DNA of 64,000 nt from assembly GCA_030272155.1 (NCBI GenBank), contig CP126195.1:6121001-6185000 (forward strand), written 5' to 3'. The stretch is from Tetradesmus obliquus (taxonomy: Eukaryota; Chlorophyta; Chlorophyceae; Sphaeropleales; Scenedesmaceae). A program made the position numbers and the translations under genes. Below the pieces are notes generated by a model, which searched no databases, had not been told where the DNA came from, and saw only the letters and a program-made list of their open reading frames with translations. Position 1 is the first letter of the stretch. The number at the start of each line of letters is the position of its first letter. Below are positions 39,121 to 64,000 of this stretch, one piece after another.

Positions 39121-40267
39121 ATGCGGCAGCAATCCTTGCTTGTTGTAGCTCTCCTGCTGTGTGTCAGCGCTGCGCCAACTCAAAGCGCCCCTGACCAGAG
39201 AGAGCTGCAGCAGCAGCAAGAGGCGGTACCAGCAGCAGCAGCAGCTGCATCCAACCCAGAGCAGCAGCAGCATGACATGACGGTGCTGCCAGCGCAGCTA
39301 GGGCTGGTCTGTGATGGCCAGGTTCGAACCCTGGTGATGGCGCAGGCTCCTTTTCCAACCTCGCCTCCTTGGACACCCATCCGCACAGCTGATGCCTTCA
39401 CATGCAGCAGGCCACTGCCAGGCACCACCCGGCAGTGCGGCAGCATGGCAGTTGACACATGTGAAGCACTGCGCTTCGGCCCTGTGCTGCAATCCTCTGG
39501 AAGCATCCCTGGCATAATCCCTCCCAACAACCCCCTGCGGTTTGCAGTAAAACCTGAGTCGCCCGCGTACCTGACGTATGTCCAGTTCCGAGCTGGCGGT
39601 ATTGGTACCGGCGGCGCCCGCGTGCGCGGCCTGTACGCGCAAGGATCTCCGCTGCGAGCTGTCAGTGACGACTATGCATGGGCAAAGAACGGGCCTGTGC
39701 AGTTGCCTGGTGGTATTGTGGTGTACGACAGCTGCGGAGACTGCAGGGTAGGGTTTGGGGTTCAGGACCTGAAGGTCGCTGCGCTGCCTGGCGCAGGGTT
39801 CAGGGCTTTGGAGCTGTCACAGCTGTTCATGGACACGCGGTGTGAGGGGTCGGGAGTCAACAATGACGGCATGCTGTGGGATGGCAACATGCGCTACAGC
39901 TGTGCCCAGGTGGGTGGACCACACAGCACCTGCCACTTGAATCTTGGTGCGAGCTCTTGGAGTTGACTCGTCACCTTGGTATAGTAATCACGTGTTCTGT
40001 TAGTAGTAACATCAAGTGTCCAAAGCCTCTGCAACGTGTGCTCATGACTGTGTGCGATGCTCCCTGGCAACGCCACTGGCAGCATGCAACTCACCACAGC
40101 AGAAACCTATTCGCAGCCGCAGCAGCAGGGAGCAGAGGTGCGTGCTTGGTGTTCGTGTATTTTACAGATCTCTATGATGCTGTGAAGCTGTCTTCGGGTT
40201 GGCAGTTGCTGCTCGACCCAGCGGCCTGTGTCAACCACGCCACGCGCTGACGGCCCACCTGCGCCCC

Positions 40268-40315
<48 letters not shown>

Positions 40316-42752
40316 CTGCTGGTGTTGCTGCTGCTACTGCTGTTGCCCCTCTGCGCGCCTGTGTCGCCTGCCTGCAGCCCACCTGCGGTGACGCTGACCT
40401 GGACAGGGAAGGTGCGCAGCAGTTTGCCGGCTGTGTGGCGCCCTTCTTCTTTGACTCCAGCAAGGCCTCTGCCAGCCCTCCAAGCGTTGCTGCGTGCTGC
40501 ACCCAGGTGAGGCTGCGGCTGTGTTTGTATATTGTGCACGCTGTGCAAGCTGTGGCACATGTGAGAGCTGTGGCACATGTGAGAGCTGTGGCACATGTGA
40601 GAGCTGTGGCACATGTGAGAGCTGTGGCACATGTGAGAGCTGTGGCACATGTGACAGCTGTGGCACATGTGACAGCGTCACGCTCGCGCGCTGCACAGAG
40701 TTGAGGGCACAGTGGCAGCTGCTGCTGCTGCTGCTGGCGGGGAGAGCAGGGTGGTGGTAGTGGAGCAGGGCAGGCTGCAGTGCGGTGCTGAACAGCGGGC
40801 AGCAGCGTGTGTTCATGGTGCCGGTGCTCGCTTGCGGATGCTACCACGAAAGATATAAGAGGCATGCTGCTGCTGGTTTGATGGTCTTGTCAATGAGCAG
40901 CAACCACACTGGATGAGCCGGTGCACTGGGCAGCACTGCCCTGCTGCATGCGGCAGGCACCCTTCAGCACCCTTCCTGCTTTTGCAGCCAGCAGCACGCG
41001 TGATTCCTGCTTATGCGGCGTGCAGCTGCATGCTTTGGTGCAGCGTTTGGTTTGGAAACATGCAATCTGTCATACATCATGCAAAACCTGCCCTGTTGCA
41101 TCTGCATTTGTTGCATCCGCACATACACCGCTGTGCCACAGGCGCCACCCAGCGCCACGTGTGGTGCAGTGGTGCCGGGGGAGCGCTACGCCTGCCCTGC
41201 TGGCTACCAATATGATGACAGGAAGAACAACGCATCCCCACCAAGCACAGACGCCTGCTGCATGGTGGGTTGGCTTGCAGTTTGGCTGCAGTGGTGTTGG
41301 TATATGCTGCTGCTCCAGCAATTATCGCATCTGCAGGGGTGGGGTGTCTATGTGTGCAGCAGCAGGAAAACTGGGTGGTAGGTTGGGTTGGCTGCAGCGG
41401 TGCCGGTATATGCTTGGCTTGGTTTGGCTGCTGCAGTATGTCATCTGCAGGCGGTACCGCAACTATGTATGCAGCAGTAGGCAGCTTGCGTAGCTACAGC
41501 GCTGGCTGTATGGCACGGTGGCTGCTGGAAGATGTAATAGGCCCTTCTCTGCTGATGATGTGTGCAGCAGCTGGGGCAGTGCTGCCAGATGCAAATGCGT
41601 TCTGTGCAGCAACATGCTCACTGAGCTTGCAGCCAGCTTGCAGGGAAGACACTCACGAGCACAGCCTAACACAGTGCTGTGTGGTGCTGCTGCAGAGGAC
41701 GTCCTGTGACAGCATAACACCTGTCACGGCGCCTGGCACCAGGTTTCCCTGCCCCTCGGGCTACGAGTATGCGCCTGCTGGCTGGCCGCCCAGCATTACC
41801 ACATGCTGCAAGGTAAGCGCCAAACAGCTGCTGCTGTGTTTGTAATGCCATGTGCCATACAACAGCGGCAGTCCCCACTGTCAGCGCGAACAATTGTGAT
41901 GCACACTTTGAGCGTGTGCTGTGGAGATATTGACCTACTGCAAGCGGCATGGGCAGCTGTTGATGAACCAAAAGGTTCACCACATGTGCATCAATCGCAC
42001 TGCCAACATCCTGACAACATGGCAGCGTGCAGCCCATGCTGGCGCTAGCCTGCGGCTCCTGTGCGGACCATCAACGATCATCTATCATGACACGTTACCA
42101 CTATACTGCTGTGTTTCTGCTGCTGCTGCTGCTTGCAGCTTGCAACGTGTGCCGACACAAGGCCTGGGTCAGCACCCGGCACGCCCTTCGCCTGCGAGTT
42201 TGGCACCGTGCCAAACCCTAATGCCCAGGCTGCCTCTCTACCCAGCCAGGCAGCCTGCTGCCTGGTAAGTGTTGCGCGGCAGCCATCAACAGACAGTGCA
42301 GCCAATTCTACTGCATACCCATGCATGGGATGAGGCTGTATGTAGCTGTTGCGGCAGGCACCTAGTGCGTTTGCAGCAACGCGTGCTCCATTACACCCCA
42401 GGGTCCAGCTGCCAGCAGCAGCGCAGCAGAACCAGCAGAGGATGCGGCCCAGCCCACATACTGCGCTGCCAGCTGCTATTGACAGGTGGCATGCCGTTGA
42501 TTGGTTGCGTGCGCCCTGTCAACCACATCACAGTGCAGCGCAAAAGTGACTCACTCTCGCTGCTCCCCATATCTGCTGTTGCCGCAAATCCCGCAGCGCA
42601 AGACGTGTGGTTCCCCTGATCCTGTAAATGCGCCAGACCAGGGGTTCGTGTGTGCTCCTTTTTCAGAGTTCAACCCCGGCAACATCCAGACCTCCCCGCC
42701 AGGACAAAACACATGCTGCAGGGTGAGCAATGCGCATTGCTGCTGCAGCTGG

Positions 42753-42793
<41 letters not shown>

Positions 42794-45700
42794 CTGCTGC
42801 TGCTGCTGCTGCTGCTGTCACTGCTGTTCAAGCACTGCATGGTTTGGCAGCTGCATGATGCAACGCCGCATCTGGCCCTCACAATACCACCATCACAGTC
42901 ACTGAGCATGGTTTGTTGCTGTTGCCGCTTTGTTTGGTGTGTGGCTTGCAGCCGCGCACCTGCGGCAACGTGTCCCCAGTGACCAAGCCCAACACCATAT
43001 TCGGCTGCCCCAGCGAAACCGAGTACGACCCAAGCACATCATTTGTCAGCCCACCTAGGTAACCACTGGAGCTGCTGCACTGCTGTGGTGACCTTTTATG
43101 CTGCAATTTTGTGCTCTGTGGCTGCAGCGCCCAGTTGTGCTAGTTTCTGCCACAGTGTCACAAAGCAAGGAGGCACTCAGCGGCAAAGGTCAGCTTGTTG
43201 TTTCTGGTGCTGAGCTTGCTGATGCCAGCACGGTAGTCCATGGCAAGAGTTGCAGAGTCGCAGCACATCTGTCTGTTGCAGCACACCTGCCTGGTTGAAT
43301 TCTCTGTTTTTAACATCCCAGAGTAAATGCTACAGCCAGATTATCACTGTGTTATGCACAGCATGCGTCTTGAGGCAGTTTAATTTAGTTTAGTTTAGTT
43401 TAGTTTAGCACAAGTCACCTGTCTTGGCAAGTACATCTGATGAAACCTTTTTGGCCTTTGCTGCACCTGCTACACCTTCACTGCACTTGTACTCTGCAGT
43501 TTGAACATTTGCTGCAAGGTGAGGATGCAGCTGATTTAGTCCACCACACGGGGAGACAGCAATGCTCTATACAGGCTAAGTCTCCCAGACTAGAGACCGA
43601 CTGCCAGTTGCCTTAGATTTGGCAGATGACAATGTCAACGTCGTACCTGACAAAGAAGCAGCCGCTCAGCGGTACACACAATGTTGCTCCTGCAGACATT
43701 GCCACACTGCATTGTACCACACACTCGATATGCCACACTGCTACATGGCTGCCTGCTGTACTTTGACTATCATTTCATGTCTGCCACTTGGTGCGTGCAG
43801 CCGAGGACGTGCAGCAACATGCAGCCGGTCACCAGCCCCAATACAGTAAAGTTCAGCTGTGTCACCCCTGGCAAGGACTTGGTGTTTAACCCTGCTGCAG
43901 CAAATGCTGCACCGCCCTCCCTGGACGCCTGCTGCAAGGTGAGGGGCAGCTGTTGACAGCAGTGCAACGGAATATGCAGGGGGCTACTGTAAGGGGTGGC
44001 CGCCTGCATTGCATAGATTGCAAAGGCATCAACTTGCTGTAACTTTGGTGCATAGCCCAACTAACCATGCACATGTTTTATTACCCCCTGCAGCCTGCCA
44101 CATGTGGGGACTCCGACCCCTCTAAGCCAGGCACGCCCTTCAACTGCCTGCTGTTCGGCATGTTCTACGACCCTGGCAATGCAGACAAGCCCGCCTCCAT
44201 GAAGAACTGCTGCGTGAGTGATGCTGATGTAAATAACAGAACAGCATGACAGCTGGAAGATTGCTGCACTGCAGGTCTGGCAGACCTGCGGCTTCTGGCT
44301 ATATGTTGCGCTCCTGAGCACCAGATTGCTGCGTCAATGGTCGGTTGACCCTCACACAGGCCTGCTTGTATGCTACCGCAGCTGCAGCAACGCTGCACTG
44401 CCTGATGTACTTTGCAAAACCTTGGTGACCAGGTTTGACCAGGTTTGACAACATCCCAGGCTGTTTGACTCAGCATGTGTAAGTCTTTGACCAGCGTTGC
44501 CTGTCCGCTCCCCTGCAGACTGACATGCCGATCGACCCCCAGAGCAGAGCCGACGTGGCCCTGAACAAAACAGTGGCACCGCCCTTTAACGGCAACAACC
44601 AGAACAGCAGCACTTTGCTGGTGGGCTCGGAGTTCACATTCAAGATCCGGGTGGAAGTTCAGGGCGAGCGCAGGGACTTTGCAGAGAACGTGGTCATGAC
44701 CGACAACTTGCCGCCCGGGCTGCTGCTTTTGTCATTCAGCGAACAGCCAAATGACAGAGGTAGGTGGCTGCCGCATCAGTGCAGTGCACCACATACTAGT
44801 GGGGTTGCGTGATAAAGCAAGGCAGCCGTCTTTGCAATTTGGTGTGCTATGTCGCAGAAAGCATGTTGGTGGGGTTAGCTGGCATCACTGCTCCTAGCGC
44901 GCTCGACTGCATGCATCTCTGCACCACTTTGGACTTTTTTCATTATGTGTGTGGTGTGTTGTGATGCTTGCAGCGTGCACGGTTGCTGGGAGCGTCATCA
45001 CCTGCAGATGGGCGCTCATCAATGCCCTGAGAGCCAACGCCAAGACTGTTACAATTGTTACAAGGGCTTTGTGGGCAGGGGTGCATGTGAACCCTGCGCA
45101 GGTCACCACCACCACCCAGGAAATAAACCCCGACAACAACTTTGACACATCTACGGCAAACGTCAAGGTGGGCTGCTTGCAAAGAATATACAGCAAGCTG
45201 CGGAGAGCCTCTATCAGCCTCTTGTTAACTCCTGACTGGGGTTCTCATTGTTTGCTTGATGGAGTGTGTTTACACAATGAGTGTGGTTGCTTAATTAGAG
45301 AGGGAAGTTACATGTAGGTGATGCACTCAACTATGTCTGTGATAAAATGTGGCTGCAGAGAGCCTGCTGCCTCGATGAGCCTCTTGTTTACTCCTGGCTG
45401 TGGTTCCCATTGTTTGCTTGACAGAGTGTGTTTACGTAATGCAATCCACTGTGTCTGTCATACACTGTGGCTGCAGGGAGCCTGCTGCCTCAGGGGCTCC
45501 TGCACAGAGTGCTGCCTGCAATCTGCCCCAAGCCCTGAAAGGTGGATGTCCTCAATGTCGCCCTGCTGCCACAAGTTTGCCCCAACATGTGTGTGTGCTG
45601 CCTTTCCTGCTGGCTGCAGGGAGCGTGCTGCCTCAGGGGGGCCTGCAGTGAGGTGCTGCCCGCATTCTGCCCCAAGCCGGGCGAGGTGGATGTGTCCAAT

Positions 45701-48259
45701 GGCTGCGCCACCACCATCACCACCTGCGGCAGGAACATCACGGACGAGACAGGTGAGCACGCAATTTCAAGGTGCAGCCAGACATGTTTTATATTCATAA
45801 AAACAACTGGTTACCTCAGCAAGTCTGTTCTCAGAATCACTTGCAAACAGCAGACCACTTGTGGCAGGAACATCACATATGAAACATGTGAGCAGCAGGT
45901 GTCTACTGTGATGCAGGCAGACGCCGCGTGCGAGGAAATGAATAGCTCTGGACACCTTCTGGGGGACGGGGTAGCTTTGGCACAGCTGTACCCTTGGTCT
46001 GCATGGCATTTCTGTTTCTTTACCTCAACATACCCAATCCGTCTCCTCAAACTTTTTTGCAAGCAGCAGACTGCAAACAGGATTTGGAATAAGGCTCATA
46101 CTATGCTGCTGGTGGCCCTGCTGCCACTGCTGTGCTGCATGACTTGCAGGTGCATGCTGCATCAACACAAACGAAGTCGCCACCTGCATCAACCGAGTGC
46201 AGCAGGCTGCCTGCAACGGCATTTGGAGCAAGGGAGCGCCCTGCAGCAGCGTTGACTGCAAGTCACCCGCTGGGGCTTGCTGCGAGGTGCCCAGCGGCAA
46301 ATGCAGCGATGGCGTAACCCGCTCGCAGTGCCCCAACCGTCACAGCTGGCTGCTGAATGGCAGGTGTGGCAAGGACGGCTGGTGCATTGGCGGCTGCTGC
46401 AATGAGGCTGCCAGCAACTGCACGGAGACCACGGCTGGCAGGTGTAGGCCTCCCGGCAAGTGGAGCCTGTACAGCAAGTGTGACAAGGACTACTGCCCAG
46501 TGGAGGTGAGTCTGCAGAAATCAGCAGGTTTTGGGGTGCTATGGTTGCTTTGTTTTTACTAGTACAAAGATTTACAGGTATTGCTTGTGGCACGTTGTAC
46601 GTTCCTCTGACTCGTAACAATGCCGACAAGTGACTGTGCCCTATCACCAAACACTGCTATTGTGTGGGCATCTCCCGGCCGCCGCCACCATGCGTGCCGC
46701 CCTGGTGGAGCTGCAAGCCGTCAGACTGACCCGGATCACGCTGATGCATATCTATGCTAAACGGATGATGCCGCTTCTGTGCCTCCCATTCTGCGCGTGC
46801 AGCCACCGTGTGTGCCGCCCTGGTGGAGCTGCAAGCCGTCCGACAAGGACCCCTGCTGCCCCGGCTACGCCTGCCTGCCCACCTACACCGGCTGCGAGGT
46901 GGGCCCGTACGTGTGCAAGCCCAAGGCGCCCACATGCGAGCCCAGCCAGTGTGGAGGCAAGCACGGGTCCTGCTGCTCAGGTGAGTGGCAAAGGGGCTGC
47001 AAGTTTCTCAATAAGGGGAAAGCTGTGCTGCATGTGGGGGCGTGTGAGTGGCGGGCAGGCAAACACAGCTCCTGCTGCTCTAATGAGTGCAGATGGGCTG
47101 TTGAGTGTTCTAGACGTGCACAGCTGCACTGCATGGCTGCGAGGTGGGCCCGTACGTGTGCAAGCCCAAGGCGCCAACCTGCGAGCCCAGCCAGTGTGGA
47201 GGCAAGCACGGCTCCTGCTGCTCAGGTGAGTGCAGAAGGAACCGGCTGTCAATGTGTTTTGGATTTGCGGCTTTTGAGTGCAGAGCCACTGCTGCAGTCA
47301 GTATGTGTGTGCAAGCCCAAGGCGCCAACCTGCGAGCCCAGCCAGTGCGGCGGCAAGCACGGCTCCTGCTCCTCCTGTGAGTGCATAGGGAAGTACGGCT
47401 ACTGTGTTTGGGGTCTTTTAGTGCAGAGGTACAGCTGCAGTCAGTATGTGTGTGCAAGCCCAGGGCGCCAACCTGCGAGCCCAGCCAGTGTGGAGGCAAG
47501 CACAGCTCCTGCTGCTCCGGTGAGTGCAGAAGGACGTACAGCTGTTGTGTTTTGTTTCGGGTTTGCGGCTTTTGAGTGCAGAGCTACAGCTGCAGTTGGT
47601 AGGTGTGAGCGAGCCCAGGGCGCCAACGTGCGAGCCCAGCCAGTGTGGAGGCAAGCACGGCTCCTGTTGCTCCAGTAAGTGGTGAAGGAAGTACAGCTAT
47701 TGTGCTTTGGGTTGTTGAGTGCAGAGCTACAGCTGCAGTCGATGTGTGTGTGCAAGTCCCAGGCGCCAACCTGCAAGCCCAACCAATGTGGAGGCAAGCA
47801 CGGCTCCTGCTGCTCCGGTGATTGTAGCAGCTGCTTGCAGCATAAACACACCAGCTGCCACCCGCTGCCATGCTATACCTCTGCTCACTTCCCAAGTGCC
47901 CAACCGACATGCAAGCTGCATGCACTGTACAGCACTGCGTGCCAAGCTGCACCATTCTTACCACCTTCCTGCTGTAACTCACCGCCCTTTCAGGCCATGG
48001 CTGCTTCTGGGATCACAAGAAGAAGCGAGGCAAGTGCTGGAAGCACAGAAGCAATGCATGCAGCAAGCCAGGCAGCCCCTGCACAGAAGACACGCAGTGC
48101 TGCGTGGGATCCCGCTGCACGAATGGCAGCTGCCAGAGGGTGACAAAGGAGCGCTGCAACCGCAAGTGCACTAGCTATGGCTGCTTCCAGGAGCGGCAGC
48201 GCGACTGTGATTGCCTGTACGCTGCTGCTGCATCAAACAGCAGGCTGGCCGTGCCCTGA
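39121..48259 (+). CDS. Large secreted DUF11/GACC/knottin protein, ECM family gene 2
   Basis: The exons are 39121-39909, 40378-40506, 41142-41264, 41696-41812, 42139-42264, 42597-42722, 42952-43058, 43500-43518, 43801-43938, 44094-44213, 44519-44759, 44974-45167, 45620-45752, 46150-46505, 46803-46980, the array 47124-47817 (five exons) and 47994-48259. Every phase closes, giving 1211 residues plus stop. Order of parts: signal peptide (MRQQSLLVVALLLCVSAAP); N-domain with LVCDGQVRTLVM and GGIGTGGARVRGLYA; eight Cys modules of 39-46 residues (for example RYACPAGYQYDDR...CC); a DUF11-type domain (FTFKIRVEVQ, NVVMTDNLPPGLLLLSF, then INPDNNFDTSTANVK); four GACC-type repeats (GACCLRGAC, GACCINT, GACCEVPSGKC, GGCCNEA); a knottin-like domain with CXXPWWSCKPSDKDPCCPGYAC; the half-knottin array; and a last knottin CSKPGSPCTEDTQCC, ending RLAVP. 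All-secreted, Cys-dense architecture suggests wall or matrix. Whether all five array exons are used is unproven. Confidence 0.8.
40260..40345 (+). repeat. CTG-rich run in gene 2 intron 1
   Basis: Imperfect (CTG)n with TTG interruptions, ending about 30 bp before the acceptor of the second exon (40378). It may act as a polypyrimidine-like tract. Confidence 0.7.
40549..40676 (+). repeat. 18-bp minisatellite in gene 2 intron 2
   Basis: About seven copies of GCTGTGGCACATGTGAGA; the last two carry GACA. The unit is a multiple of three, so all three forward frames stay open. One reads as a Cys-rich hexapeptide SCGTCE repeat, another as AVAHVR. The array begins about 43 bp after the donor at 40507. 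It is skipped in my model. Confidence 0.9.
43380..43409 (+). repeat. (TTTAG)n short tandem repeat
   Basis: Five copies of TTTAG lie in the intron just before the 19-nt microexon of gene 2. It is not the green-algal telomere unit. Confidence 0.85.
43500..43518 (+). other. 19-nt microexon of ECM gene 2
   Basis: The exon TTTGAACATTTGCTGCAAG sits between CTCTGCAG and GTGAGG. The preceding exon (42952-43058, 107 nt) ends in SPP plus two bases of a codon, without the terminal CC of the module. Adding 19 nt gives SPPS-LNICCK and a module of exactly 126 nt, the same size as its neighbours. The tiny exon is therefore strongly supported by module length and by the conserved terminal Cys pair. Confidence 0.85.
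44519..45167 (+). other. DUF11-type domain of ECM gene 2 (two exons)
   Basis: Exons 44519-44759 and 44974-45167. The first carries FTFKIRVEVQGERRDFAENV and VMTDNLPPGLLLLSF. The second carries a Cys-start strand CTVAGSVITC and the end INPDNNFDTSTANVK. The order (N/A-x-NVVxxDxLPxGL, then C, then NPxNNxxxS/D) is that of the DUF11 repeat found in bacterial and archaeal surface proteins. The corresponding exons in gene 3 (55545-55764, 55163-55353) and gene 4 (62922-63141, 63503-63693) match it more closely (DTNPNNNQDSD). Confidence 0.75.
45205..45600 (+). repeat. Intronic duplications of acceptor plus exon start (gene 2)
   Basis: Before the true exon at 45620, its first 80 or so bases appear as a diverged copy at 45477-45560 (GGAGCCTGCTGCCTCAGGGG), also after CTGCAG. 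This copy has a one-base shift relative to the exon, so it cannot encode the same repeat. A further stretch (GCCTCTTGTTWACTCCTGRC ... TTGCTTGAYRGAGTGTGTTTA) occurs twice, from about 45213 and from about 45379. These are nested tandem duplications of about 145-165 bp. Confidence 0.75.
47124..47817 (+). repeat. Tandem array of five phase-1 exon duplications (half-knottin units)
   Basis: After the knottin exon 46803-46980, its 3' half and intron recur five times. The in-frame exons are 47124-47225 (102 nt) and 47284-47376, 47427-47519, 47582-47674 and 47725-47817 (93 nt each). Each has an AG acceptor and a GT donor (GTGAGT three times, GTAAGT, GTGATT). Each enters and leaves in phase 1, so any number can be included without a frame change. 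The repeated unit reads VCKPKAPTCEPSQCGGKHGS followed by CCS. Copy 4 has lost the VCVCK cysteines. Spacing is about 143-160 bp. The exons are proposed from sequence; their use in mRNA is not shown. Confidence 0.75.
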
Positions 48260-49213: not shown

Positions 49214-49245
<32 letters not shown>

Positions 49246-51681: not shown

Positions 51682-51724
<43 letters not shown>

Positions 51725-52820: not shown

Positions 52821-55800
52821 TCACACCATGTACTTGGCGCCAGCTGCTGACAGCTTGGCAGCAGAGGTGGCATAGAAGGCGTTACAATCCTTCTTGCGCT
52901 CCACAAAGCAGTTGTAATCGAAGCACTCCTTGTGACACTTCTCGTATGTGACTGGCGTGCACTGGCCGCCGTGCTTTGCCAGGCGCTTGGTGGCCAGCTT
53001 GCTCTTGCCCTGGGGGAAGCAGCAGCGCGAGCCGTAGCAGCAGTCGCGGTCGTCGCCGCACTGGTCGCCGTCCTTGCGGCAGTAGTCGGGGTTGGGCTCG
53101 GGGTGGCAGCTGCCCTTGTGCTGCTTGTAGTCCCAGTAGCACGCAAAGCCTGGCCGGGTAGGGCGGTGGGGGCAGGGGTGGGCGGCACGGCATGTGGAAG
53201 GGTGAAAAGGTTGTGTCAGCCAGGGAAACACTGTGATGGTGTTGTGCGGCCATGCATGCAGGCCTGTGGTTCCAAACAAAGTAATTACTGCTGCTGTAAC
53301 CAGGCGCTTCTGCACCGCAACATGTACACTTGCACCGCGCAGCTGCTCTGATGCGTGCCTCTGCCTGCTTGTCCTTATACATCGGACATGCATGCACAAA
53401 GGTACATGTTTGCCGGTGCTGATACAGCGAATCTTTGCCCGAGTAACACATGCCCCATGTCACGTGCCCCTGCCCTTATCCCAGCAACCCACCCAACCTG
53501 CAGCAGCCCACTCCACGCTACTCAAACCCCAGCACAGTGCATCTCTGCTTATCTGTGCATGACCATCACTATGTACCCCTGCCCTTATGCCAACACCTCC
53601 CGCCCAGCCACACCGCCGCTCACCCTCGCAGCAGACCGCGCCGGACTTGCCGCCGCAGGAGAAGCCCTCCTGGCCGCAGCTGGGCGTGAACTTGGGCTGG
53701 CACACATACTTGCCGACCTTGCAGCCCTTGGGGGCCTCCTGGCAGGAGTAGCCGGAGCAGCACTCGTCCTCGCCCTTGCCCCAGAACTTGGGCTTGCACT
53801 TGTACCAAGGTGGAGTGCAGGTGTCACCCTGCAGCCAGCAAGCGCAGTGAGGCAGAGCGCAGAAGCAGCAGAGCTGATGAAGCATGCTGGTGCTACCACG
53901 GCAGGCTGCAGCCTGTCTGTTGGTTGTGCCTGTCATTCTTCAACATGGTGGCAACATAACGCTGATTTTGTGCAATGTTATGTTCCTGCAAGCCCTTGTA
54001 TGTTCCTGCAAGCGCCCGCCTGCAAGCGCCTGCATGTTCCTGCAAGCACCCCCATGTTCCTGGAAGCACCCGCGTGTTCCTGCAAAGCCCCACATGTTCC
54101 TGCAAGCGCCTGTGGCACCATGTGTCTGTCACAGTTTCACAGTAAGCCAGGATTTCCAGCCAGCAGCTTCAAACATCCAATCGCAGAGTCAATGACAGGC
54201 AACATCTGCCACCCTCACTCACATTGGGGCACTTGAGCGGGTCGCACTGGCCGTAGATGGTCCACAGCTGCGTGGGCGAGGCGCAGTCGGCCTTCTTGGA
54301 CTGGTAGCAGTTGCCGTTGGCAGTGTCGCAGCAGGCGCCCGAGCAGTAGCCGTCGCTGCTGCAGCTGCCGTTCTTCCACCAGGTGCTCCACTTGAGGTCA
54401 CACTGCGTGATGCTCTTGTCCTCAAAGCACTCGCCGCTGCGCACGTTGCAGCAGGCGCCGCTGGGCTGCCTGCAGGTGCCCTGCTTGCGCAGCTCGTCGC
54501 AGAGCTTGCCCTGGTACCAGGTGCCGCCCGCGGCGCTACATGCGGTCTCGTAGGTGCGCTCAATGCACTGGCCCAGCAGCTCCAGGCAGCAGGCGCCGCC
54601 GGGGATGGGCCCGCAGGGCACCTCGTTGCAGTTCTTGCTGTTGTAGAAGGTGTTGGGGTCGGGGCAGGAGGCCTTGGAGGGCACCTCGCTGCAGCTGGGA
54701 GGGGACACGCGGCTGTTGCAGCACGCGCCCTGCAAGTACAAACAGTACACAGGAAAGGGTGCGTTGTTCGATTGGACTATTTTGCTAAGCAGAGCACACT
54801 GGTGTGATATGTTACGTGATAAAACCCATTGCAAATTCTGTGATCACGCAAGATGAATTATGCAAAGAACACACCTGCACCGATCGCCCTATGCTGCTTC
54901 AGCATGCTTAGCAGCAACCCTTCTGCCTGACAGAGGCCTTGCATAGCGGTTGTGCATGTGTTCCTGCACATCACTTTCTTTCCAGCATTGCACTGCACGA
55001 CACTTTCCCTCCTCATACACAGCATACACCACATGCACACATTCACCTGATGAACCATCTCGACCCTCAGCTGGCAAGTGACTCTTGATCAAGACCCCTT
55101 CTTTACAATGTGCAGGAGCTTGTTCCACACTATGTGCCTATGAGGCACACGCCCCTGCTCACCTTGACTTCCACTGTATCAGAGTCCTGGTTGTTGTTGG
55201 GGTTGGTGTCACCCGAAGCGGTCTTCACAAATGCAGTGTTGGTGTACGAGCCGGCGGTTGTGGATGTCACCGTCACTTGCACAACGCGCACATCTTGGAA
55301 TAGTAGCACTGGCCATGTGCAGCGGAACTTGTGCGCAGTGACCGTCTGGCAAGCTGCAGCACAAAACAGTAACAACAGCAGATGCAGAAACACATGCAAG
55401 CAGTATGTGTCAGCGAGTTTGTCTGTGCACTTGATACTTGGCCCGCATTTGCAAGCGCTGACACGCGCTTGCGTTGACAAGAGCTGACAAGAGCTGGCGC
55501 TGAAGCAGCATAGCTGAGCCACACTGCTTGGCTGGCAGCCTCACCGTTTTCGAAGGGTGTGTGCTCCTCTGTCACGCCGTCCAGCAGCAGCCCCGCGGGC
55601 ACCTCGTCCTCCAGCACCACGTTGCGCGCCACTGCTGTGGCCAGGCCCCTCACGCCCACCTCGATAGTAAAAGTGAACTGGCTGCCCACGGGCCTGGCCT
55701 TGGGCGCGTTGGTCTGCTTGACCACGTACACGTCCGGCGCGGACGCGGGAGGAGACTTCTTGGTCTGCAAGCAAGATGGAAATTGCAGCAGCAGGGCTGT

Positions 55801-58500
55801 GAGAAATGGCTTGCGCTGTTTCCTGCAAGCTGTGCCAACACCTAGAGTGCTTGAAGCAGATGCGGGTTTTGTACTTGTGATTTCAGCCGCTGCGCAGTTT
55901 TGCATGCAGCCACAGGCTTTATCTGGGAGCACAGCAACAAGGAAAGCTACTAGCTGCAGAACCCAACACTAGCTCCCATGCATGCATAGGAAGTGCCTGC
56001 TAGCGCTTCACAACACAAACTCAACCCCAGTCCCAGCCATTCACACAGCACCCTGGCACCAGATCATACAGGCTGGTGTTGGGGTCCTCTGGGTCAATCA
56101 ACCACAAGCTGTACAAGAATGCACGCACGCATGGCAAGTGCATGCAAGCACATGGAACATCATATGCAACTCATGATTCAGCCCGGACACTCACGCAGCA
56201 CACTGGCACCAGGTCGTCCAGGCTGGTGTTGGGGTCCTCTGGGTCAATCGGCGTGTCTGCTGCTTTGGGGTTGTACTGGAAGCAGCTGGTCTCAAAGGGC
56301 GGCGAGTCACAGCCGCCGATGGTGAGGCAGGGGAAGGGCTGGTCACCCGGCAGCGGGGAGGTGTCGCCGCAGGTGTAGGCGAACTGCAGGGGGTGGCGGC
56401 AGGAGAGGAGAGCCGGGATATGGGTGCACGCACAGCTTCAGTCAGAGTCATGGATGTCTGGAAAGGATGCAGCGTTTAGCATTGCAGATCTTCCTCCATG
56501 AATGCATTGCAGCAGGAAATGCCTGCACTGCAACATCATCAGCACTGATATGTCAGCAGCTTACCAGGTTCATGTGTGCGTGCCAAATATGCTTTGCGCA
56601 GCTGCTGCGGATGTACCCAGCTGGCTTACACATGTCAGCAGAAACATACCCGCTGCTTGTTTCTAGTTGTGTGTGTGGCTGCAAGCTCACCTTGCAGCAG
56701 TTGCTGTCGCTGGGGCTGGCAACGCTGTCTGCGCCTGCCTTGTATGAAAAGCCAGCAGGGCACGCGTACTGCTGCTTCCCTGGCCTCGACAGGTCGGTGT
56801 CACCGCAGGTGGGCTGCGCAGGGCACACAGAACACCAGACACAGGTCGAAAGCGGCAGCAGCAGCAATAACATCAGTGGTGCTGTCGCTGTACTGTTGCT
56901 GGCAGCGGCTTACAGAGTGCAGCTTGGCTTGGGCGCACGGATGATGTGCATGTACAAGCGGACGCAGCACAACTGCTGCGCACCCTAAACCGCAGCAGCT
57001 AGCACACAAAGCACAGTACAGCACCACCGCATCAGCTCACCTGCATACAGGCATAGGTCATGCCCGTCCAGTAGGAGCCATCCAGATCGAAGCAGGACTT
57101 GCCGCAGCGCGGGGAGCCGTACAGCTGGCTGATTTCAAAGGCCGCGTATCCAGTGCCCGGGCGCGCGTCCAGGCGCATCTCTTTGATGCCCTTACCCATG
57201 TTGCAGTCTGAGCACACGTCGCAATTGTTATCGCCGTCCACTGGGCCTGGCGGCAGCGTCCAGCCATGCTCGATCTTGTCATCTGCGATCTGAGATCCTG
57301 CAGGATACTTGCCGACCATCTTGGCGCCGCCGGTGCCCACATCGTACACCGTCCAAGCCACATACGTCATGAAGTGACCCGGCTGCATTGCAAATACCAG
57401 GGGGTTGTCGGGGTGGATCAGTAGCGGAGCGCTGCCGCCTTGCGTGTCACCATATGTCACAGGGCCAATCAAGCCGTTGTTGTCTGTGAATGGCAGGCAG
57501 GCAATGGATTGCAGCGCAGAGCAGGTGCCTCCTTGGGGGCGGCTGCAGGACATGCCCGGCGGCAGGGTATAGGGGCTGAGCTTGGTTGGAACCACGATGG
57601 TGTGCTGGTTGCCGTCACAGATGAGGACGTCGGACTGCGCAGCGGGGACAGCTGTAGCGTTGACAGCCGGCACTTTTGTAGCTGCCTGCTTCGGTGTTGC
57701 AGCAGCGGGCTTGTCGGTGGTAGGCGTTGGGGGTGTAGCAGGGGTAGCGCTGCTTGCCTGCTGCTGTGTGGGTGCTGTGGTGCCCCTTTGGACAGCCTGC
57801 TGCACTGGTAGGCCTGTGACCTTGTTGATGGCAGGATCATCCTGCACCTGAGGTGTTGTGGCTGCTGGCGCCTGGGCTGCCTGCTGCTGTGCTGTGGTAG
57901 GTGTCTTGCTGGCGGTCTGGCGCAGTGCGCGGAGTGCAGCTGGCTGCTCCTCCCGCTGCCAGAGAGGCACGGCGTCAGTGTTGCGGGTACCTACAGCTGC
58001 TGCAACCCATGGAGAACAGCAGCGGACGTGCCCAGGATTACGTGGCGAAGAGTTGGTCCGTGTGCATGCGCTGCTGCTGCTGGCAGCAGGGGCTGACGCT
58101 GTCTACCTAGCACACTGACAGCATGTTCTTGTTAACAATGTCACGTATCATTGGCCAGCAGTGATCCTGGAATGTCCACAGATTTCTTTGCCAAGACCAC
58201 CTGTCACAACTTTCAGGCAACCGCTGCCGCCACAGCATTCCACTCACGTGCATCCGTCACATCTGGTGCAGCCACGCAGAGGCTGTCTGGGCAGCCCGCG
58301 CACTGCGCACAGCCGGCACACGACCCCGCCTGGCACACACAGGTGTTGGGGAAGGCCACGCGGCAGCTGCTGCTGGCCTCCGGCCGCTTTGCTGCTGCTG
58401 CGGTGGGCTGTGCGGCGTCTGCTGCACTGCACAGCAGCAGGCTTGACGTTGCCAGCACTGCCAGCAGCACTGTTTGGTGCTGCAGCTGCATGGTGCGCAT
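52821..58500 (-). CDS. Large secreted DUF11/GACC/knottin protein, ECM family gene 3
   Basis: The nine minus-strand exons are 58248-58500, 57041-57999, 56691-56813, 56195-56383, 55545-55764, 55163-55353, 54223-54729, 53624-53828 and 52821-53149. The phases close to 991 residues. Order of parts: signal peptide (VLLAVLATSSLLLCSAADA); a Cys-rich head (CVCQAGSCAGCAQCAGC); an Ala/Pro/Gln/Thr linker of about 95 residues; the N-domain (LICDGNQHTIVVP, YDVGTGGAKMVGKYPAGS, CDVCSDC, SCFDLDGSYWTGMTYAC); one 41-residue Cys module; one 63-residue variant module; a DUF11-type domain (GLATAVARNVVLEDEVPAGL; DTNPNNNQDSDTVEV); four GACC repeats in one 507-nt exon; a knottin-like domain with CTPPWYKCK...DECCSGYSC; and a last one, CRKDGDQCGDDRDCCYGSRC, ending AAGAKYMV. 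Compared with gene 2 it has two modules instead of eight and no half-knottin array. A gap-free extracellular architecture is seen; the function is unknown. Confidence 0.82.
53975..54115 (+). repeat. Minisatellite in gene 3 intron 7
   Basis: About six imperfect units of TGTTCCTGCAAGCRCCYGCA, each near 22 bp, between the GACC exon and the knottin exon. Confidence 0.8.
56042..56100 (-). repeat. Intronic copy of the end of gene 3 exon 4
   Basis: The stretch CAGGCTGGTGTTGGGGTCCT followed by CTGGGTCAATC occurs here and again inside exon 56195-56383 (at about 56217-56249). The upstream neighbour GGCACCAGRTC is shared as well. The copy lies in the following intron and is not used in the model, so it is another duplicated exon end. 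Confidence 0.8.
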
Positions 58501-60258
58501 GCCGGCCTGCAAGCAGACCGCAGGCAGCAGGCATGATAGTTTATGCTGCTTGCTGCGTAATGAATATTGTGATCATTGTAATGATCATTGTAAACAATTG
58601 CTGTGACAATTGGCCATCAGACTCTCAGGAGTACAATACTGCTGTGGAGCAGCTGCAGAGCCGCCAGCTGGTAGCATGGGCATTGGTGTACTGACTGTGT
58701 TTGTACCTACGTGCTGCTGCAACAAGCAGCAGGCAAGAACATATGGATTGCATGTGTCTGCCACGAGGGATGGCCACCTTCATATCGCTGCCCGCACCCT
58801 ACCCACCTGTTGCCCTCCTTCACTGCAAGTGTTTTACTTGTACTCTGCTTCACTCAAGGCAGGCAGCAGCGGCAACAGCAAAACACAGCTGGTTGTTGAA
58901 CATGAGCATTGTCGCAGGTAGCAGCTGTTCAGCACAGCTGTGCAAGGCCTGGCCTGCTTGCAGGACAGTGCGGTTGGCAGCAGAAGCTGGCAACTGGGCC
59001 CAGTGGGCCAACATCGATGTTGCTGCAGGTGCCTTGCACTCTGACCGGCTATTAAGAAGTTGTCAATATTCATATCTATCAATGCTGAAAGCATGTCGCA
59101 TGTTCTGGCTGCCTCCTCAATGCATATTCAACGTGGTGGTTGCGGTGAACACCTTGTTGACGTGCTCGGGGAGGCTGCAGCTGCAGGTTATTGAAGCGCA
59201 AGGACAAGCGCAAATGTATACTGCACAAATTAGCATGCAGTGCTTGCTCGCTGCTGCGGCGATCAAAGCCCGACACAACCAGCTGTACAGATGCCTGTCA
59301 ACGGTGCGCCCTGGCTTATGTGAAGTTGGAAGCTGCTGAAACTAACCTCAAATGGCTCTGCAAGTTGCGTAGAACGACACCTCTCGATCCTTGCGATGAT
59401 GGCAGTCTATCCAGTACACAGGGCGTCACCCCACTCGTAGCAACACAGCTGGGCAACAAGTTTGCAGTATTATCGTGTGTCTCAGCTCTCTCGATGAGAC
59501 ATAAGTAGTTCCGCTCTGGAACCAGCTGTCCTGAGTTAGAACCCAAAGTGGCTCCTGCACTGTCAGTTACCCACAATTTTGCGGCATACAACTCCGAAGA
59601 GACCAGGCAGGCTGACTATTGAAAACTTTGTAGTTGACATATCTTAATATAGCTTCGGCTGCTATCTAGTTTGAGCGCTGATTACACCCCCTCACCTTCC
59701 ACACTGGTGTACCAGTTGATTGCGGGCTGCCTGGAAGCCCCATACAAGATCAAAAGCTTTTAGCAGACGATTAGGTGTGTGTTGAATTATATGATTTGGA
59801 GAGAGCCGGCAGTGGTGTCGCTGTAGCTGTCCTGGCTACCAGCATTGATGTTGAGGTCACCAGCAGCTGCACTGCTGTATCTAGCACTGACACACGACAT
59901 GATATGCTGATAAGCGTCTGTTAAGCAGCTCAGACTGGTTTGCGGCAGACTCGCTTGCTGGTCAGCTGATCGTGACCCTTAACCACCACGGTCAACCACA
60001 CCTGAGCAGACAACTCTAGAAAGCCATTCGTCCAGCGAACCACCATGTCAGTTGCATGCTTGAAGTAGAATTGGTGTGGCAGGCGAAATCAGAGTGACAG
60101 CTGCCAATGCTGCAGCCCTCCTGTCCATGGATCGCTCTTGGCCTGCAGTCTGGTGTTCTCAAATGCTCTTGTACATGTTGCTGCTTCTATGTCTTGCTGC
60201 TGCTGTACAATTGATGCTGCTGCTTGCAGGAGATCCGGAGCTGTCCTTACAGGCCGGC
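58501..60258. promoter_or_regulatory. Divergent intergenic region between ECM genes 3 and 4
   Basis: 1.76 kb separate the two head-to-head start codons. Similarity between the two genes begins abruptly at AGGCCGGCATGCGCACCATG, directly after an AG in both (TTGCAG in gene 3, CCTTACAG in gene 4). This suggests that a 5' UTR intron ends right before each ATG. Beyond that, the two upstream flanks do not look alike. The segment 59500-60060 is lower in GC. No further gene is seen. Confidence 0.5.
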
Positions 60259-63200
60259 ATGCGCACCATGAAGCTGCAGCACCGAGCAGTGCTGCTGGCA
60301 GTGCTGGCAGCGTCAAGCCTGCTGCTGTGCAGTGCAGCAGACGCCGCACAGCCCACCGCAGCAGCAGCAGCAGCAGAGCAGCCTGAGGCCAGCAGCAGCT
60401 GCCGTGTGGCCTTCCCCAACACCTGCGTGTGCCAGGCGGGGTCGTGTGCGGGCTGTGCGCAGTGCGCGGGCTGCCCAGACAGCCTCTGCGTGGCTGCACC
60501 AGACGTGACGGATGCACGTGAGTCATGTGCTGCAGCAGCTTGTCCTGCAACTTCATTTACAAAGCTCCAAGCAGGCGGCAGTGCTTAGGGTCTTCTGACA
60601 TTCAAAGGCCTCGCAATGCTATGCCAGAACACGTTCGTTGTTGGAGCTGCCTGCCAAGCTGCTCTCGCAGCTTCATTTCCATCAAGGCTGTCAGCAATTG
60701 TGCTCTTGACTGTGTTCTGCACTGTACTGCTCGTGACATACTCCTGCAGCCAGCAAGGGTGTCCGCAATGCTGATGCAATCCACATATGGGCACGCGAGG
60801 AGCCGCCAGTTGCGCGCCGCGCGCTGCAGCAATCAACAACAGCACGCACCCTCCTGCAGTCAAACGTTGTCACGTGCGACGGCACCCTGCGCACCATCAT
60901 CCTGCCTACTGCTGAGGCTCCATACACCCTGCCGAGCGGCCTGTCCTGCGGCCGACCAAACGGCGGGTCCTGCGCTGGCCAAAACGCAATTTCCTGCAAG
61001 CCCTTCACAGATGACAAGGGCCTCATCGGCCCCATTACATTTGGAGAGGAGACCAGCCAAGCGCCGCTGCTGATCAACCCAGATAATCCGCTGGTCTTCA
61101 CGCTTGCACCCGGCCTGTTCATGACGTCCGTTGCCTGGAAGGTGTATGACGTCGGGACAGGCGGCGCACGGCTTGTGGGCAAGTATCCTGCAGGGTCCAA
61201 CATTGCAGCTGACAAGGTGGAGCATGAGTGGACGCTGCCGCCTGGCCCAATTGATGGAGATGGCAACTGTGACGCCTGCACCAACTGCACAGTTGGCTTT
61301 GGCATGAAGGACATGGCAGTAAAGGCCCGGGCAGGCGCCGGCTACTCCTCATTCGAGCTCAGCCAGATCTATGCTGCCCCGCGCTGCGGCAAGTCCTGCT
61401 TCGATCTGGACGGCTCCTACTGGACGGGCATGGCCTACTCCTGCGTGCAGGTGAGCAGCTGCCAGGGCTGGGCATCCTTGTAGGGATTTGAAACTTGTTA
61501 TTTGTTATTGCCTGAGGGATGCTGCAGTGCTTGCAGGATTCCAGTGCTGTTGCAGCATGACTGTGCCCAGGTCACTGCCAACCCTCTGTCCTGCTGTTCC
61601 CTGTGTGTGACTAGAGAACCTCAGCAAGCAGGTGTGTCTTATGCCTTGCTGCTGACATGTCGCTGATGTGCAACCAAACTCCTGTTGTTACGCTTGCCTG
61701 CTCATGCTCGCCTGCTCACTTGCAGGCCACCTGTGGTGACACTGACTACATGCCCTGCCGCTCCCGGTCACTATCACTGGTGCAACAAACACAGAAGGAG
61801 ATGCACACTGGTGAAACAAACACAGGAGATGCACCTGGGCCCTGCTGCTAGCTGGCAGGTTCATGCACTGCCGCTTCAAACTCATGCCCGCCTGCTCATG
61901 CTTTTTACCTGCTTGCTTGCAGGCCACCTGTGGTGATACTGACCTGGGCAAGCCAGGCAAGCAGAAGTATGAGTGCCCAGCTGGCTTCACCTACGACATG
62001 GACGCAGACAGCAAGACAGCAATCAGCGATTCCAGCTGCTGCACAGTGAGTGCGATGTTGTTGTGCTGTTGCCTCGCGCGTGATCACACATCATTAGCGT
62101 AAGGCCAGCAAAGTGTCTGGAATTCAAATCGCGTTGCGCAACACTGGTGCATGCTGTGTGCGCAGCGGGGATGCGACTGACGTGCACCTCTCTCTTTAAA
62201 CCCATCCTCCCATCTTCTAGTACCCTGTGTCACCTGTCGCTGCCGCCTGCTGCAGTTTGAGTACACCTGCGGTGATATCAGCCCCCTGCCAGGCAAGCAG
62301 CTCTTCCCCTGCCTGGCTGTGGGCGGGTGTGACGCGCCGCCCTTTGCCACCAACTGCTGGGCCTACGATGCCAAGAATGCAGATGTGTCCATCGATGCAG
62401 GCAACCCTAACAAGACGCCAGAGGACTTTGTGCCCATCTGCTGCGTGAGTACACTCCTTGACTGTGCTGAGGGCTGTCGCATGTGTCTGCAACAACCGTC
62501 AAGGTGCTGGTGCACAAGCGTATAAAACAGGCACTGGTGTACTTGCGTGTTTCTGCAGCCTCCTGTGCAGCTGCATTGCCAGGAAGCTGCATGCAACTGC
62601 AGGCCATGTTGCACCTGCTCAGCGCCATCCACCCCGCTGGCTGCTGCCACGTGACACCGCATTGCCTCCCTCTCCGCAGACCAAGACTTGCCATGCGTGC
62701 ATGCATGTGCAGCTAGTGTTGGGTTCTGCAGCTGGGAGCTTCATGTTGCTGTACTGTTCAGAGGAAGCCTCTGGCTGCATGCAAGCTGCTCGGTGCTGAC
62801 ATCACAAGTGCAAAATCTGCATCTGCTTCAAGCACTCCAGGTGTTGGCACAGCTTGCAGGAGCATCATGATCTAAATCCTTTCTCACAGCCCTGCTGCTG
62901 CAATCTCCGTCATGCTTGCAGACCAAGAAGTCTCCTCCCGCGTCTGCGCCGGACGTGTACGTGGTCAAGCAGACCAACGCGCCCAAGGCCAAGCCCGTAG
63001 GCAGCCAGTTCACCTTTACCATCGAGGTGGGCGTGAGGGGCCTGGCCACAGCAGTGGCGCGAAACGTGGTGCTGGAGGACGAGGTGCCCGCGGGGCTGCT
63101 GCTGGACGGCGCGCAGGAGATCACGCAGCCTGGTGAAAAGGGTGAGGCACAGCAGCAGGCAATGCGCAGTGCTGGGCGCCTGGAGAGCAAGAGGCAGGGC

Positions 63201-64000
63201 GGTAGAGGGGTTGGCAGCATGGTATGCAGATGCCAGCATTGGCATCTTGCTGTGGAATGACGTCGGCGTGAGACGAGGTGACAGAGGCAACACGTCACCC
63301 TGTGCATGCATTTTGAAATCCACTTGCGCTGGCTTGCTCCTGGTGAACCGCATAGCAAAACTTCCTGCTCAGTGCTAAAGGCAATTGCAGCTGCCACAGC
63401 TGAACTCCTGGTACCTTGCAGTTAGAAGTCCTTGTCCTAACAGGTTCCCTGGTGCACTGCCTGTCTCCTTGCACCTGCTGCTGCTGCTGCTGTCTCTTGC
63501 AGCTTGTCAGACGGTCACTGCACGCAAGTTCCGCTGCACATGGCTGGTGCTGCTCTTCCAGGATGTGCGCACGGTGCAGGTGACAGTGACTGGCCAAATC
63601 GCTGGCGACTACACCAACACCGCGTTTGTGAAGACCACGTCTGGTGACACCAATCCGAACAACAACCAGGACTCAGACACTCTTCAGGTCAAGGTGAGCA
63701 AGCGGGATGTGTGGACATCTAATACAAGGACCTGCGCAAGCTTGCGATTTCCTGCAGTGATTTGGCATGTAGGCATGTCGGGTGCAGGAGGCTGGAGTTC
63801 GCAGCGTGTGCCAAATACATGTGGTGCAGCCAGCTACTGCCCTTTATTTATGAATAATGGTGTCAATCGCAATGTCACCACGCTGCGGACCTAACCACCA
63901 ATCACAAATCAGGGTGCTGTGCGTAAAGATCCAGTCCAACTCACCTCTGCACTTCTTCCCTGTGTGCTGCCTGTGCCTGCACAGGGTGCGTGCTGCAACA
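60259..64000 (+). CDS. Large secreted DUF11/GACC protein, ECM family gene 4 (partial)
   Basis: The exons are 60259-60517, 60750-61450, 61923-62045, 62256-62444, 62922-63141, 63503-63693 and 63985 onward, running off the right edge with the start of a GACC repeat. 561 residues are complete. The first exon is almost identical to that of gene 3 (signal peptide, then CVCQAGSCAGCAQCAGC). The four exons from the Cys module to DUF11 have exactly the same lengths as in gene 3 (123, 189, 220, 191 nt). The N-domain reads VVTCDGTLRTIILP, YDVGTGGARLVGKYPAGS, CDACTNC, SCFDLDGSYWTGMAYSC. The long Ala/Pro/Gln linker of gene 3 is replaced by a shorter one, so the second exon is 701 rather than 959 nt. The DUF11 part ends TSGDTNPNNNQDSDTLQV. 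It is a recent inverted duplicate of gene 3; the GACC and knottin parts are expected beyond the window. Confidence 0.82.
61720..61770 (+). repeat. Intronic copy of the start of gene 4 exon 3
   Basis: CTTGCAGGCCACCTGTGGTG followed by ACACTGACTACATGCC repeats the acceptor and first 20 or so bases of the true exon at 61923 (CTTGCAGGCCACCTGTGGTG followed by ATACTGACC). The upstream pyrimidine-rich stretch is shared. The copy soon loses the module sequence and its cysteines, so it is not a usable module. Confidence 0.8.

What the first reader, a model, noticed from the sequence alone, without database searches (positions are those of the whole stretch)
39121..64000. Undescribed family of secreted proteins joining an algal N-domain, DUF11, GACC repeats and knottins
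Genes 2, 3 and 4 share the same layout in the same order: signal peptide, N-domain of about 220 aa with GTGGA and CxxCxxC motifs, small Cys modules, one DUF11-type domain and GACC repeats. Genes 2 and 3 end in knottin-like domains; gene 4 leaves the window at its first GACC repeat. Seen directly: reading frames close in phase through 9 to 21 exons, giving 1211 and 991 residues. Known: DUF11 and GACC-type repeats are mostly reported from bacterial and archaeal surface proteins. Inference: an algal cell-wall, adhesion or matrix family, possibly with domains acquired from prokaryotes.
Basis: partly seen in the sequence, partly recalled or inferred. Interest (0 to 1): 0.88.

Follow-up and report, generated by a model that had tools for sequence, protein, structure and literature searches.

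The report
Modular cysteine-rich secreted algal protein family
A freshwater green alga carries a family of secreted, disulfide-rich proteins built from a fixed series of small modules, one of which it shares with planctomycete bacteria; they are probably cell-wall proteins, but their function has not been tested.

Summary
Genes 2, 3 and 4 are intact multi-exon genes with one layout: signal-like start, N-domain, small CC modules, one DUF11 (Pfam E 2.5e-11 to 8e-14), GACC repeats, knottin-pattern domains and a Cys tail. Gene 4 closes outside the window (906 aa) with the same ending. Exon-limited similarity between genes 3 and 4, with dN/dS 0.29, supports the models. The genome matches Tetradesmus obliquus.

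One N-domain-free paralogue carries a 765-aa Pro/Ser/Ala shaft like a wall hydroxyproline-rich glycoprotein. GACC repeats match planctomycete repeats in reciprocal profile searches. The N-domain has no Pfam match; its weak model is all-beta, nearest to carbohydrate-binding modules.

Best reading: secreted cell-wall or matrix proteins, N-domain on glycan, disulfide-rich C-terminal half for assembly. Wall function and bacterial origin are inferred. No RNA-seq or other algal genomes were available.

The parts
39121..39909 (+). Gene 2 exon 1: signal-like start (39121 to about 39186) and N-domain (39283-39909)
   Evidence: ATG to GT donor, phase 0; N-domain aligns with three other window copies
40378..44213 (+). 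Gene 2: eight TCG..CC modules, seven in one phase-0 exon each and one in two exons (40378-40506, 41142-41264, 41696-41812, 42139-42264, 42597-42722, 42952-43058 + 43500-43518, 43801-43938, 44094-44213)
   Evidence: exon chain; seven of the eight pass i-E 0.01 with a module HMM built from these and other modules, the one at 42597 does not
44519..45167 (+). Gene 2: DUF11 in two exons (44519-44759, 44974-45167) split by a phase-1 intron
   Evidence: Pfam PF01345 E 2.5e-11, residues 626-739
45620..46505 (+). Gene 2: GACC repeats (exons 45620-45752 and 46150-46505)
   Evidence: the unit in 45620-45752 was read by eye
46803..48259 (+). Gene 2: knottin-pattern domains and Cys tail (exons 46803-46980 and 47994-48259), stop at 48257-48259
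   Evidence: Toxin_12 below cut-off, E 0.015
47156..47821 (+). Gene 2: tandem array, 4.5 copies of 143 bp, of part of the knottin exon with intron sequence (optional or decayed exons)
57041..58500 (-). Gene 3: signal-like start and small CxxC stretch (58500-58248), then P/T/A/Q linker and N-domain (57999-57041)
56195..56813 (-). Gene 3: two CC modules (56813-56691, 56383-56195)
55163..55764 (-). Gene 3: DUF11 (55764-55545, 55353-55163) split by a phase-1 intron
   Evidence: Pfam PF01345 E 8.2e-14, residues 519-642
54223..54729 (-). Gene 3: four GACC repeats in one exon
52821..53828 (-). Gene 3: knottin-pattern domains and Cys tail (53828-53624, 53149-52821)
60259..61450 (+). Gene 4: signal-like start and CxxC stretch (60259-60517), linker and N-domain (60750-61450)
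61923..62444 (+). Gene 4: two CC modules (61923-62045, 62256-62444)
   Evidence: the first passes the module HMM, the second is assigned by its match to gene 3's exon
62922..63693 (+). Gene 4: DUF11 (62922-63141, 63503-63693)
   Evidence: Pfam PF01345 E 3e-13
63985..64000 (+). Gene 4: start of the GACC exon; the gene goes on outside the window to its stop at L009:1482-1484 (C5:6186482-6186484)
26670..27410 (-).

Best explanation
A family of secreted, disulfide-rich structural proteins of the cell wall or extracellular matrix of Tetradesmus (Scenedesmus) obliquus. Shown: signal-like N-terminus, no membrane-like segment elsewhere, 8-9% cysteine, recurring module order, purifying selection between genes 3 and 4, the shared C-terminal half at 10 loci. 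Inferred: the N-domain (in other members a Pro-rich shaft or runs of DUF11) reaches out to or binds wall glycan; CC modules and DUF11 act as stiff spacers; the GACC, knottin and tail block is a protease-resistant, disulfide-locked unit that anchors or cross-links the protein into the wall.
For: Intact gene models with complete module order. Exon-limited conservation and dN/dS 0.29 between genes 3 and 4. DUF11 over Pfam cut-off in all three. The same order DUF11, GACC, knottins, tail was read at C1, C5:1.27M, C9 (two), C13 (two) and C17; the C17 GACC exon matches those of C13 (9.8e-31, 3.3e-28) and C9 (4.9e-11, 1.3e-10). Knottin-tail matches also lie at a third C9 place and on C2, where DUF11 and GACC were not read. 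The C1 member has a 765-aa stretch of 37% Pro, 25% Ala, 19% Ser before its CC modules and DUF11, as in hydroxyproline-rich wall glycoproteins (recalled). N-domain model: all beta, pTM 0.69; 20 of the 50 weak PDB matches listed are carbohydrate-binding modules, several being copies of one protein. S. obliquus walls hold glycoproteins above 150 kDa and only about 0.1% of wall spectra were assigned (PMC11839794; abstract, introduction, first part of section 14 and search passages read).
Against: No expression, proteomic or localisation data were seen, and no signal-peptide program was run (hydropathy only). Genes 2-4 themselves lack an extensin-like stretch (gene 3 has only a P/T/A/Q linker). The N-domain model is weak (pLDDT 64.7, four sequences; best Foldseek E 5.8e-3, and that to a bacterial cleaved-adhesin domain; query TM 0.17-0.42). 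The DUF11 structure was not modelled because its two exons could not be joined for that tool. The seven other loci were not spliced. At the C5:1.27M locus a GACC block also lies before a DUF11, so the order is not strict there. The published wall list gives accessions of other species that could not be compared here.
Confidence: 0.55

Rival explanations
1. Secreted defence proteins: the knottin domains act as antimicrobial, anti-grazer or protease-inhibitor heads, carried on spacers and held near the cell by the N-domain.
For: Knottin cysteine pattern; sub-threshold Toxin_12 (E 0.015); theraphotoxin chains at E 0.31-0.47; the top three Foldseek matches of the knottin model are sea-anemone and spider toxins, with E 1.6-1.9, not significant; tandem expansion of a knottin exon.
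Against: The knottin block lies behind GACC and before the tail at all 10 loci read and is not a free peptide; no diversifying selection between genes 3 and 4 (knottin and tail dN/dS 0.22); the shared scaffold is most of the protein.
Confidence: 0.15
2. Adhesion proteins or lectins for cell-cell or cell-surface contact (coenobium, biofilm, self-flocculation): the N-domain binds sugars on neighbouring cells.
For: CBM- and lectin-like neighbours of the N-domain model, among them discoidin II and gingipain cleaved-adhesin domains; cell-wall polysaccharide and cell-wall proteins are discussed for S. obliquus self-flocculation (PMC7590803, passages).
Against: The fold match is weak; that paper names GPI-anchored and fasciclin proteins and a B-lectin, and 'DUF' does not occur in its main text.
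Confidence: 0.2
3. The C-terminal block, or its GACC part, was acquired from Planctomycetota and then amplified.
For: Reciprocal profile matches: a bacterial GACC model finds algal units (best 1.7e-7; 6 domains at i-E 0.01 or better against 0 in reversed frames and 0 in five shuffled sets); an algal model still finds bacterial units with the GACC letters masked (68 domains in 120 ORFs, filters off). By my reading of the titles, 65 of 80 held bacterial loci are Planctomycetota, at least 10 of them from one genome bin. One of 62 bacterial GACC proteins also has DUF11.
Against: Run on the whole spliced proteins, the bacterial model gave nothing significant: gene 2 E 3, genes 3 and 4 not listed, probably through the composition correction. 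Direction not tested; no other eukaryotes searched; short Cys repeats can converge; 15 of the 80 loci carry other labels; algal copies are intron-rich and scattered over several chromosomes, so any transfer is old; no CC, knottin or N-domain match in the bacterial loci, which were picked for GACC.
Confidence: 0.25
4. Mis-assembled or pseudogene exons that only look like one gene.
For: No transcript evidence; gene 2 holds decayed-looking duplicate exons (near 45478 and 47156-47821).
Against: Frames close in three genes; exon-limited conservation; dN/dS 0.29; the same order at seven other loci.
Confidence: 0.05

Closest known systems
DUF11 (Pfam PF01345) surface proteins of bacteria and archaea
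   Same: A full-length DUF11 domain over the Pfam cut-off, beside other extracellular modules
   Different: Here in a eukaryote, split by a phase-1 intron, followed by GACC repeats and knottin-pattern domains; NCBIfam gives no match for gene 3
GACC repeat proteins of Planctomycetota (no Pfam name found)
   Same: GACC, then C, C, (GG.[WY].G), C..C at matching spacing; reciprocal profile matches
   Different: Bacterial copies come in other contexts (Dockerin_1 in 6, CARDB in 3, DUF11 in 1 of 62 proteins); no knottin or CC modules found there
Hydroxyproline-rich wall glycoproteins of green algae (extensin-like, GP1 type; recalled)
   Same: Secreted; the C1 paralogue has a 765-aa Pro/Ser/Ala shaft
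   Different: Genes 2-4 have no such shaft and are Cys-rich
Knottin / inhibitor cystine knot domains
   Same: C..C..CC..C..C order with plausible spacing; model with a two-stranded hairpin
   Different: Below the Pfam Toxin_12 cut-off; embedded in a large protein
Carbohydrate-binding modules of jelly-roll type (CBM29, CBM62, CBM32)
   Same: All-beta model; best target TM 0.53 with CBM29
   Different: No sequence match; low model confidence; extra conserved cysteines

Membership tests
DUF11 (PF01345) | Profile match over curated cut-off across the whole profile | tested here: met
   44.3, 52.3 and 50.5 bits against 24.6; gene 3 covers 1-114 of 114
DUF11 (PF01345) | Beta-sandwich fold | not tested
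   The two exons are not contiguous in DNA, so no model was made
Knottin (ICK) | C-Xn-C-Xn-CC-Xn-C-Xn-C order | tested here: met
   Gene 2 residues 909 on and 980 on; gene 3 818 on and 865 on; gene 4 734 on and 780 on. The pattern is loose: it also hits GACC units (gene 2 860; gene 3 722 and 768) and many chance frames
Knottin (ICK) | Knotted fold | tested here: inconclusive
   pLDDT 65.2, pTM 0.52; top three PDB matches are ICK toxins but E 1.6-1.9
Pfam Toxin_12 (PF07740) | Score over curated cut-off | tested here: not met
   16.4 bits against 21 in gene 2; not listed for gene 3 or 4
Bacterial GACC repeat | Profile similarity beyond the GACC letters | tested here: met
   Reciprocal searches, masked and shuffled controls; not significant when whole proteins are the target
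Jelly-roll carbohydrate-binding module (N-domain) | Fold match | tested here: inconclusive
   No PDB match at E 0.001 or better; 20 of 50 listed rows are CBMs
Jelly-roll carbohydrate-binding module (N-domain) | Sugar binding | not testable with these tools
   Needs a binding assay
Hydroxyproline-rich glycoprotein | Long Pro/Ser-rich stretch in genes 2-4 | tested here: not met
   None seen in the proteins of genes 2-4; gene 3 linker 14% Pro; present in the C1 paralogue
Pherophorin (DUF3707; number recalled) | Pfam match | tested here: not met
   No such family at E 1 or better in genes 2, 3, 4 or gene 1's N-domain

The most novel reading that the evidence does not exclude
These genes encode a so far unrecognised class of wall proteins of Scenedesmaceae, including some of the unidentified high-mass wall glycoproteins, with a new glycan-binding domain at one end and, at the other, a disulfide-locked assembly block whose GACC repeats came from planctomycete bacteria and spread over several chromosomes.
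Probability: 0.15. Interest if true: 0.72.

Novelty: new variant of a known kind. Interest (0 to 1): 0.52.

Why it matters
The proteins of the tough Scenedesmus wall are poorly known: in the one wall proteome read here about 0.1% of spectra could be assigned (PMC11839794). A defined family with a recurring module order gives candidates to look for in wall extracts after reduction and deglycosylation. It also defines two modules with no Pfam match found, the N-domain and the GACC repeat, the second shared by an alga and planctomycetes.

Tried and rejected
Sequence search of the N-domain: no match in viral contigs, no Pfam family at E 1 or better for gene 1's N-domain, and no convincing PDB sequence match for gene 3 (best E 0.057, to PsaO in the linker). 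A direct match of the C17 GACC exon reached C13 and C9 but not genes 2-4, C1 or C5:1.27M at E 1, so two subgroups are joined only by profile and spacing. Rfam: no match in 37001-64000. Papers: DUF11 with green algae and cell wall (2 papers), DUF11 with alga (25 of 33 listed), DUF11 with Chlamydomonas as whole words (0), DUF11 with Planctomycetes and eukaryot (4), knottin with green alga and Chlamydomonas (1), Tetradesmus obliquus with secreted proteins and cysteine-rich (0), GACC repeat (10 of 30 listed): none of those listed describes such a family by its title and abstract start. Only open papers were searched. PMC12571836, PMC10762512, PMC11573180 and PMC7590803 were seen only as search passages.

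Considered and rejected: pherophorins (no Pfam match); one hybrid gene made of two neighbours (the same order recurs at other loci); chance cysteine patterns (controls; one of five shuffled sets gave a single hit at 0.0043 with the algal GACC model, none at 0.01 with the bacterial model).
Full report
Where it is. The window lies in a genome of 104,662,953 bases in 17 contigs. Its D1 processing protease is identical over 89 of 89 residues, and over 110 of 112 in another stretch, to the solved chains 1fc6/1fc7, which I recall as coming from Scenedesmus obliquus. A published table lists Tetradesmus obliquus GCA_030272155.1 with 104.70 Mb, 17 contigs and 56.5% GC (PMC12571836, passages). The organism is therefore T. 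obliquus or a very close relative. The paper counts two annotated T. obliquus genomes, so these genes may already have automatic names; I could not see them.

The genes. Gene 2 (+, 16 exons, 1053 aa), gene 3 (-, 9 exons, 991 aa) and gene 4 (+, 9 exons, 906 aa) were built by hand with GT..AG junctions and close in frame. Genes 3 and 4 stand head to head. Gene 4's end lies outside the window and has the same knottins and tail as gene 3. A blastn comparison of genes 3 and 4 gave nine blocks, one per exon; in each gene 15 of 18 block ends lie within 33 bp of the predicted exon ends (only blocks at similar offsets were printed). The exceptions are the diverged linker in exon 2, a block that runs about 220 bp into intron 4, and one end 53 bp before the last exon. 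Forced global alignment of the introns matches 27-69% of the longer intron, so they are diverged but not unrelated. Overall dS is 0.430, dN 0.126 and their ratio 0.29. These are strong signs of real, selected coding exons, though not a substitute for cDNA.

The modules. DUF11 passes the Pfam cut-off in all three genes. The N-domain (about 200 aa) has no Pfam family at E 1 or better. It was found at five places in this genome: genes 1-4 in the window and a gene on C15. In gene 1 and the C15 gene CC modules follow and no DUF11 was seen; but the exon-wise DUF11 search of the genome also missed gene 2's split DUF11, so this absence is not proof. The CC module, TCG..C..CC, mostly lies one per phase-0 exon; gene 2 has eight, genes 3 and 4 have two each, and the C15 region has 14 module hits in tandemly repeated blocks. 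These module models were built partly from the same sequences, so their own hits are no independent test; they missed one module in gene 2 and one in gene 4 at i-E 0.01.

The family is defined by its C-terminal half. DUF11, then GACC repeats, then knottin-pattern domains, then a cysteine tail were read in this order at 10 loci: genes 2, 3, 4 and loci on C1, C5 near 1.27 Mb, C9 (two), C13 (two) and C17. The seven others were read exon by exon and not spliced. Their best GACC units score from 8.2e-13 (C1) through 3.9e-4 and 5.7e-4 (C9), 0.0016 (C17), 0.0027 (C5) and 0.022 (C13) to a non-significant 0.33 (the other C13 locus, L022); that last one is secured by its match to the C17 exon at 3.3e-28. 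At C5:1.27M a further GACC block lies before a DUF11. Knottin-tail matches at a third C9 place and on C2 were not read for DUF11 or GACC. The upstream halves differ: the N-domain in genes 2-4, and on C1 a 765-aa stretch of 37% Pro, 25% Ala and 19% Ser. DUF11 is split near profile position 60 in genes 3 and 4 and in C1, and by a phase-1 intron in gene 2 as well, which points to common descent.

GACC repeats. An exact DNA pattern for a recalled consensus found at least 120 stretches; of 80 held, 65 are titled as Planctomycetota by my count, at least 10 of them from one genome bin. A model from 394 bacterial units in 75 loci finds algal units at 1.7e-7 (C1), 8.5e-6 (gene 4) and 1.4e-5 (gene 3) among 5575 reading frames, with six domains at 0.01 or better; reversed frames and five shuffled sets give none at 0.01. 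Against the three whole spliced proteins the same model was not significant (gene 2 E 3; genes 3 and 4 not listed), which I ascribe to the correction for cysteine-rich composition. A model from eight algal units finds 35 domains in 13 of 80 bacterial loci. With the GACC letters masked and filters off, it still finds 68 domains in 120 bacterial frames. So the two repeats share spacing well beyond four letters. Of 79 loci with a motif-bearing frame, 62 frames of 150-1100 aa were scanned with Pfam and 17 were left out by length: DUF11 in one, CARDB in three, Dockerin_1 in six. Five of six high-scoring bacterial GACC proteins have no Pfam match at 0.001. Common origin is likely, direction unknown.

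Structures. The N-domain of gene 4, folded with four sequences, gives an all-beta model (pLDDT 64.7, pTM 0.69). No PDB match reaches E 0.001; the best by E is a gingipain cleaved-adhesin domain (5.8e-3), 20 of the 50 rows shown are carbohydrate-binding modules (several of them copies of one protein), others are discoidin and IFT25 domains, and the best by target TM is CBM29 (0.53). Gene 3's first knottin exon gives a small model with one hairpin (pLDDT 65.2, pTM 0.52); its top three matches are ICK toxins, at E 1.6-1.9. Both are hints only. The knottin cysteine pattern is loose and also hits GACC units.

What it most likely does. The four N-termini tested are hydrophobic and signal-like, genes 2-4 have no later stretch of membrane-like hydropathy, and cysteine makes up 8-9% of genes 2-4 (no signal-peptide program was run). 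With the Pro-rich C1 paralogue this points to the cell wall or matrix. The wall of S. obliquus holds glycoproteins above 150 kDa, and most wall spectra stayed unassigned (PMC11839794). I propose that the N-terminal part reaches or binds glycan and the C-terminal block is a disulfide-locked assembly or anchoring unit. This is inference. Defence and adhesion are the main rivals.

Novelty. Each part has a known analogue, but the combination was not met in the open papers searched, and the N-domain and GACC repeat have no Pfam match here. I rate it a new variant of a known kind.

Noticed in passing
window 52821-58500 and 60259-64000 (to L009:1484): Genes 3 and 4 are an inverted pair with patchy divergence: GACC exon dS 0.12 and the first 84 codons dS 0.08, but N-domain dS 1.06, while introns between near-identical exons mostly give no blastn block. 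This suggests exon-limited gene conversion, perhaps through cDNA, or strong synonymous constraint.
   Followed up: partly
window 47156-47821: Tandem array of part of a knottin exon with intron sequence, 4.5 copies of 143 bp; by eye at least one copy could be spliced in frame, so protein length may vary.
   Followed up: partly
window about 45478-45540: Decayed-looking duplicate of the start of the GACC exon at 45620 (read by eye).
   Followed up: no
L020 (C1:9944001-9954000): Paralogue with a 765-aa Pro/Ser/Ala shaft, three tandem LLSQFP repeats, CC modules, two DUF11, GACC repeats, knottins and tail.
   Followed up: partly
L021 (C15), L033 and L034 (C5:1.28M): CC modules at repeated spacings of roughly 950 bp, suggesting recent multi-exon tandem duplications.
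   Followed up: no
L046-L125: GACC repeats are widespread in Planctomycetota and also occur under several other labels, with up to 21 motif matches in one reading frame, and five of six high-scoring proteins have no Pfam match.
   Followed up: partly
C10:5053416-5064365 (L030, L031): A gene region with 14 DUF11 matches, six of them near full length in single open frames without the family's usual intron, with weak CC-module matches at regular spacing.
   Followed up: no
L029 against L022-L025: GACC exons of C17, C13 and C9 form a close subgroup that does not directly match those of genes 2-4, C1 or C5:1.27M at E 1; two subfamilies with possibly separate histories.
   Followed up: partly
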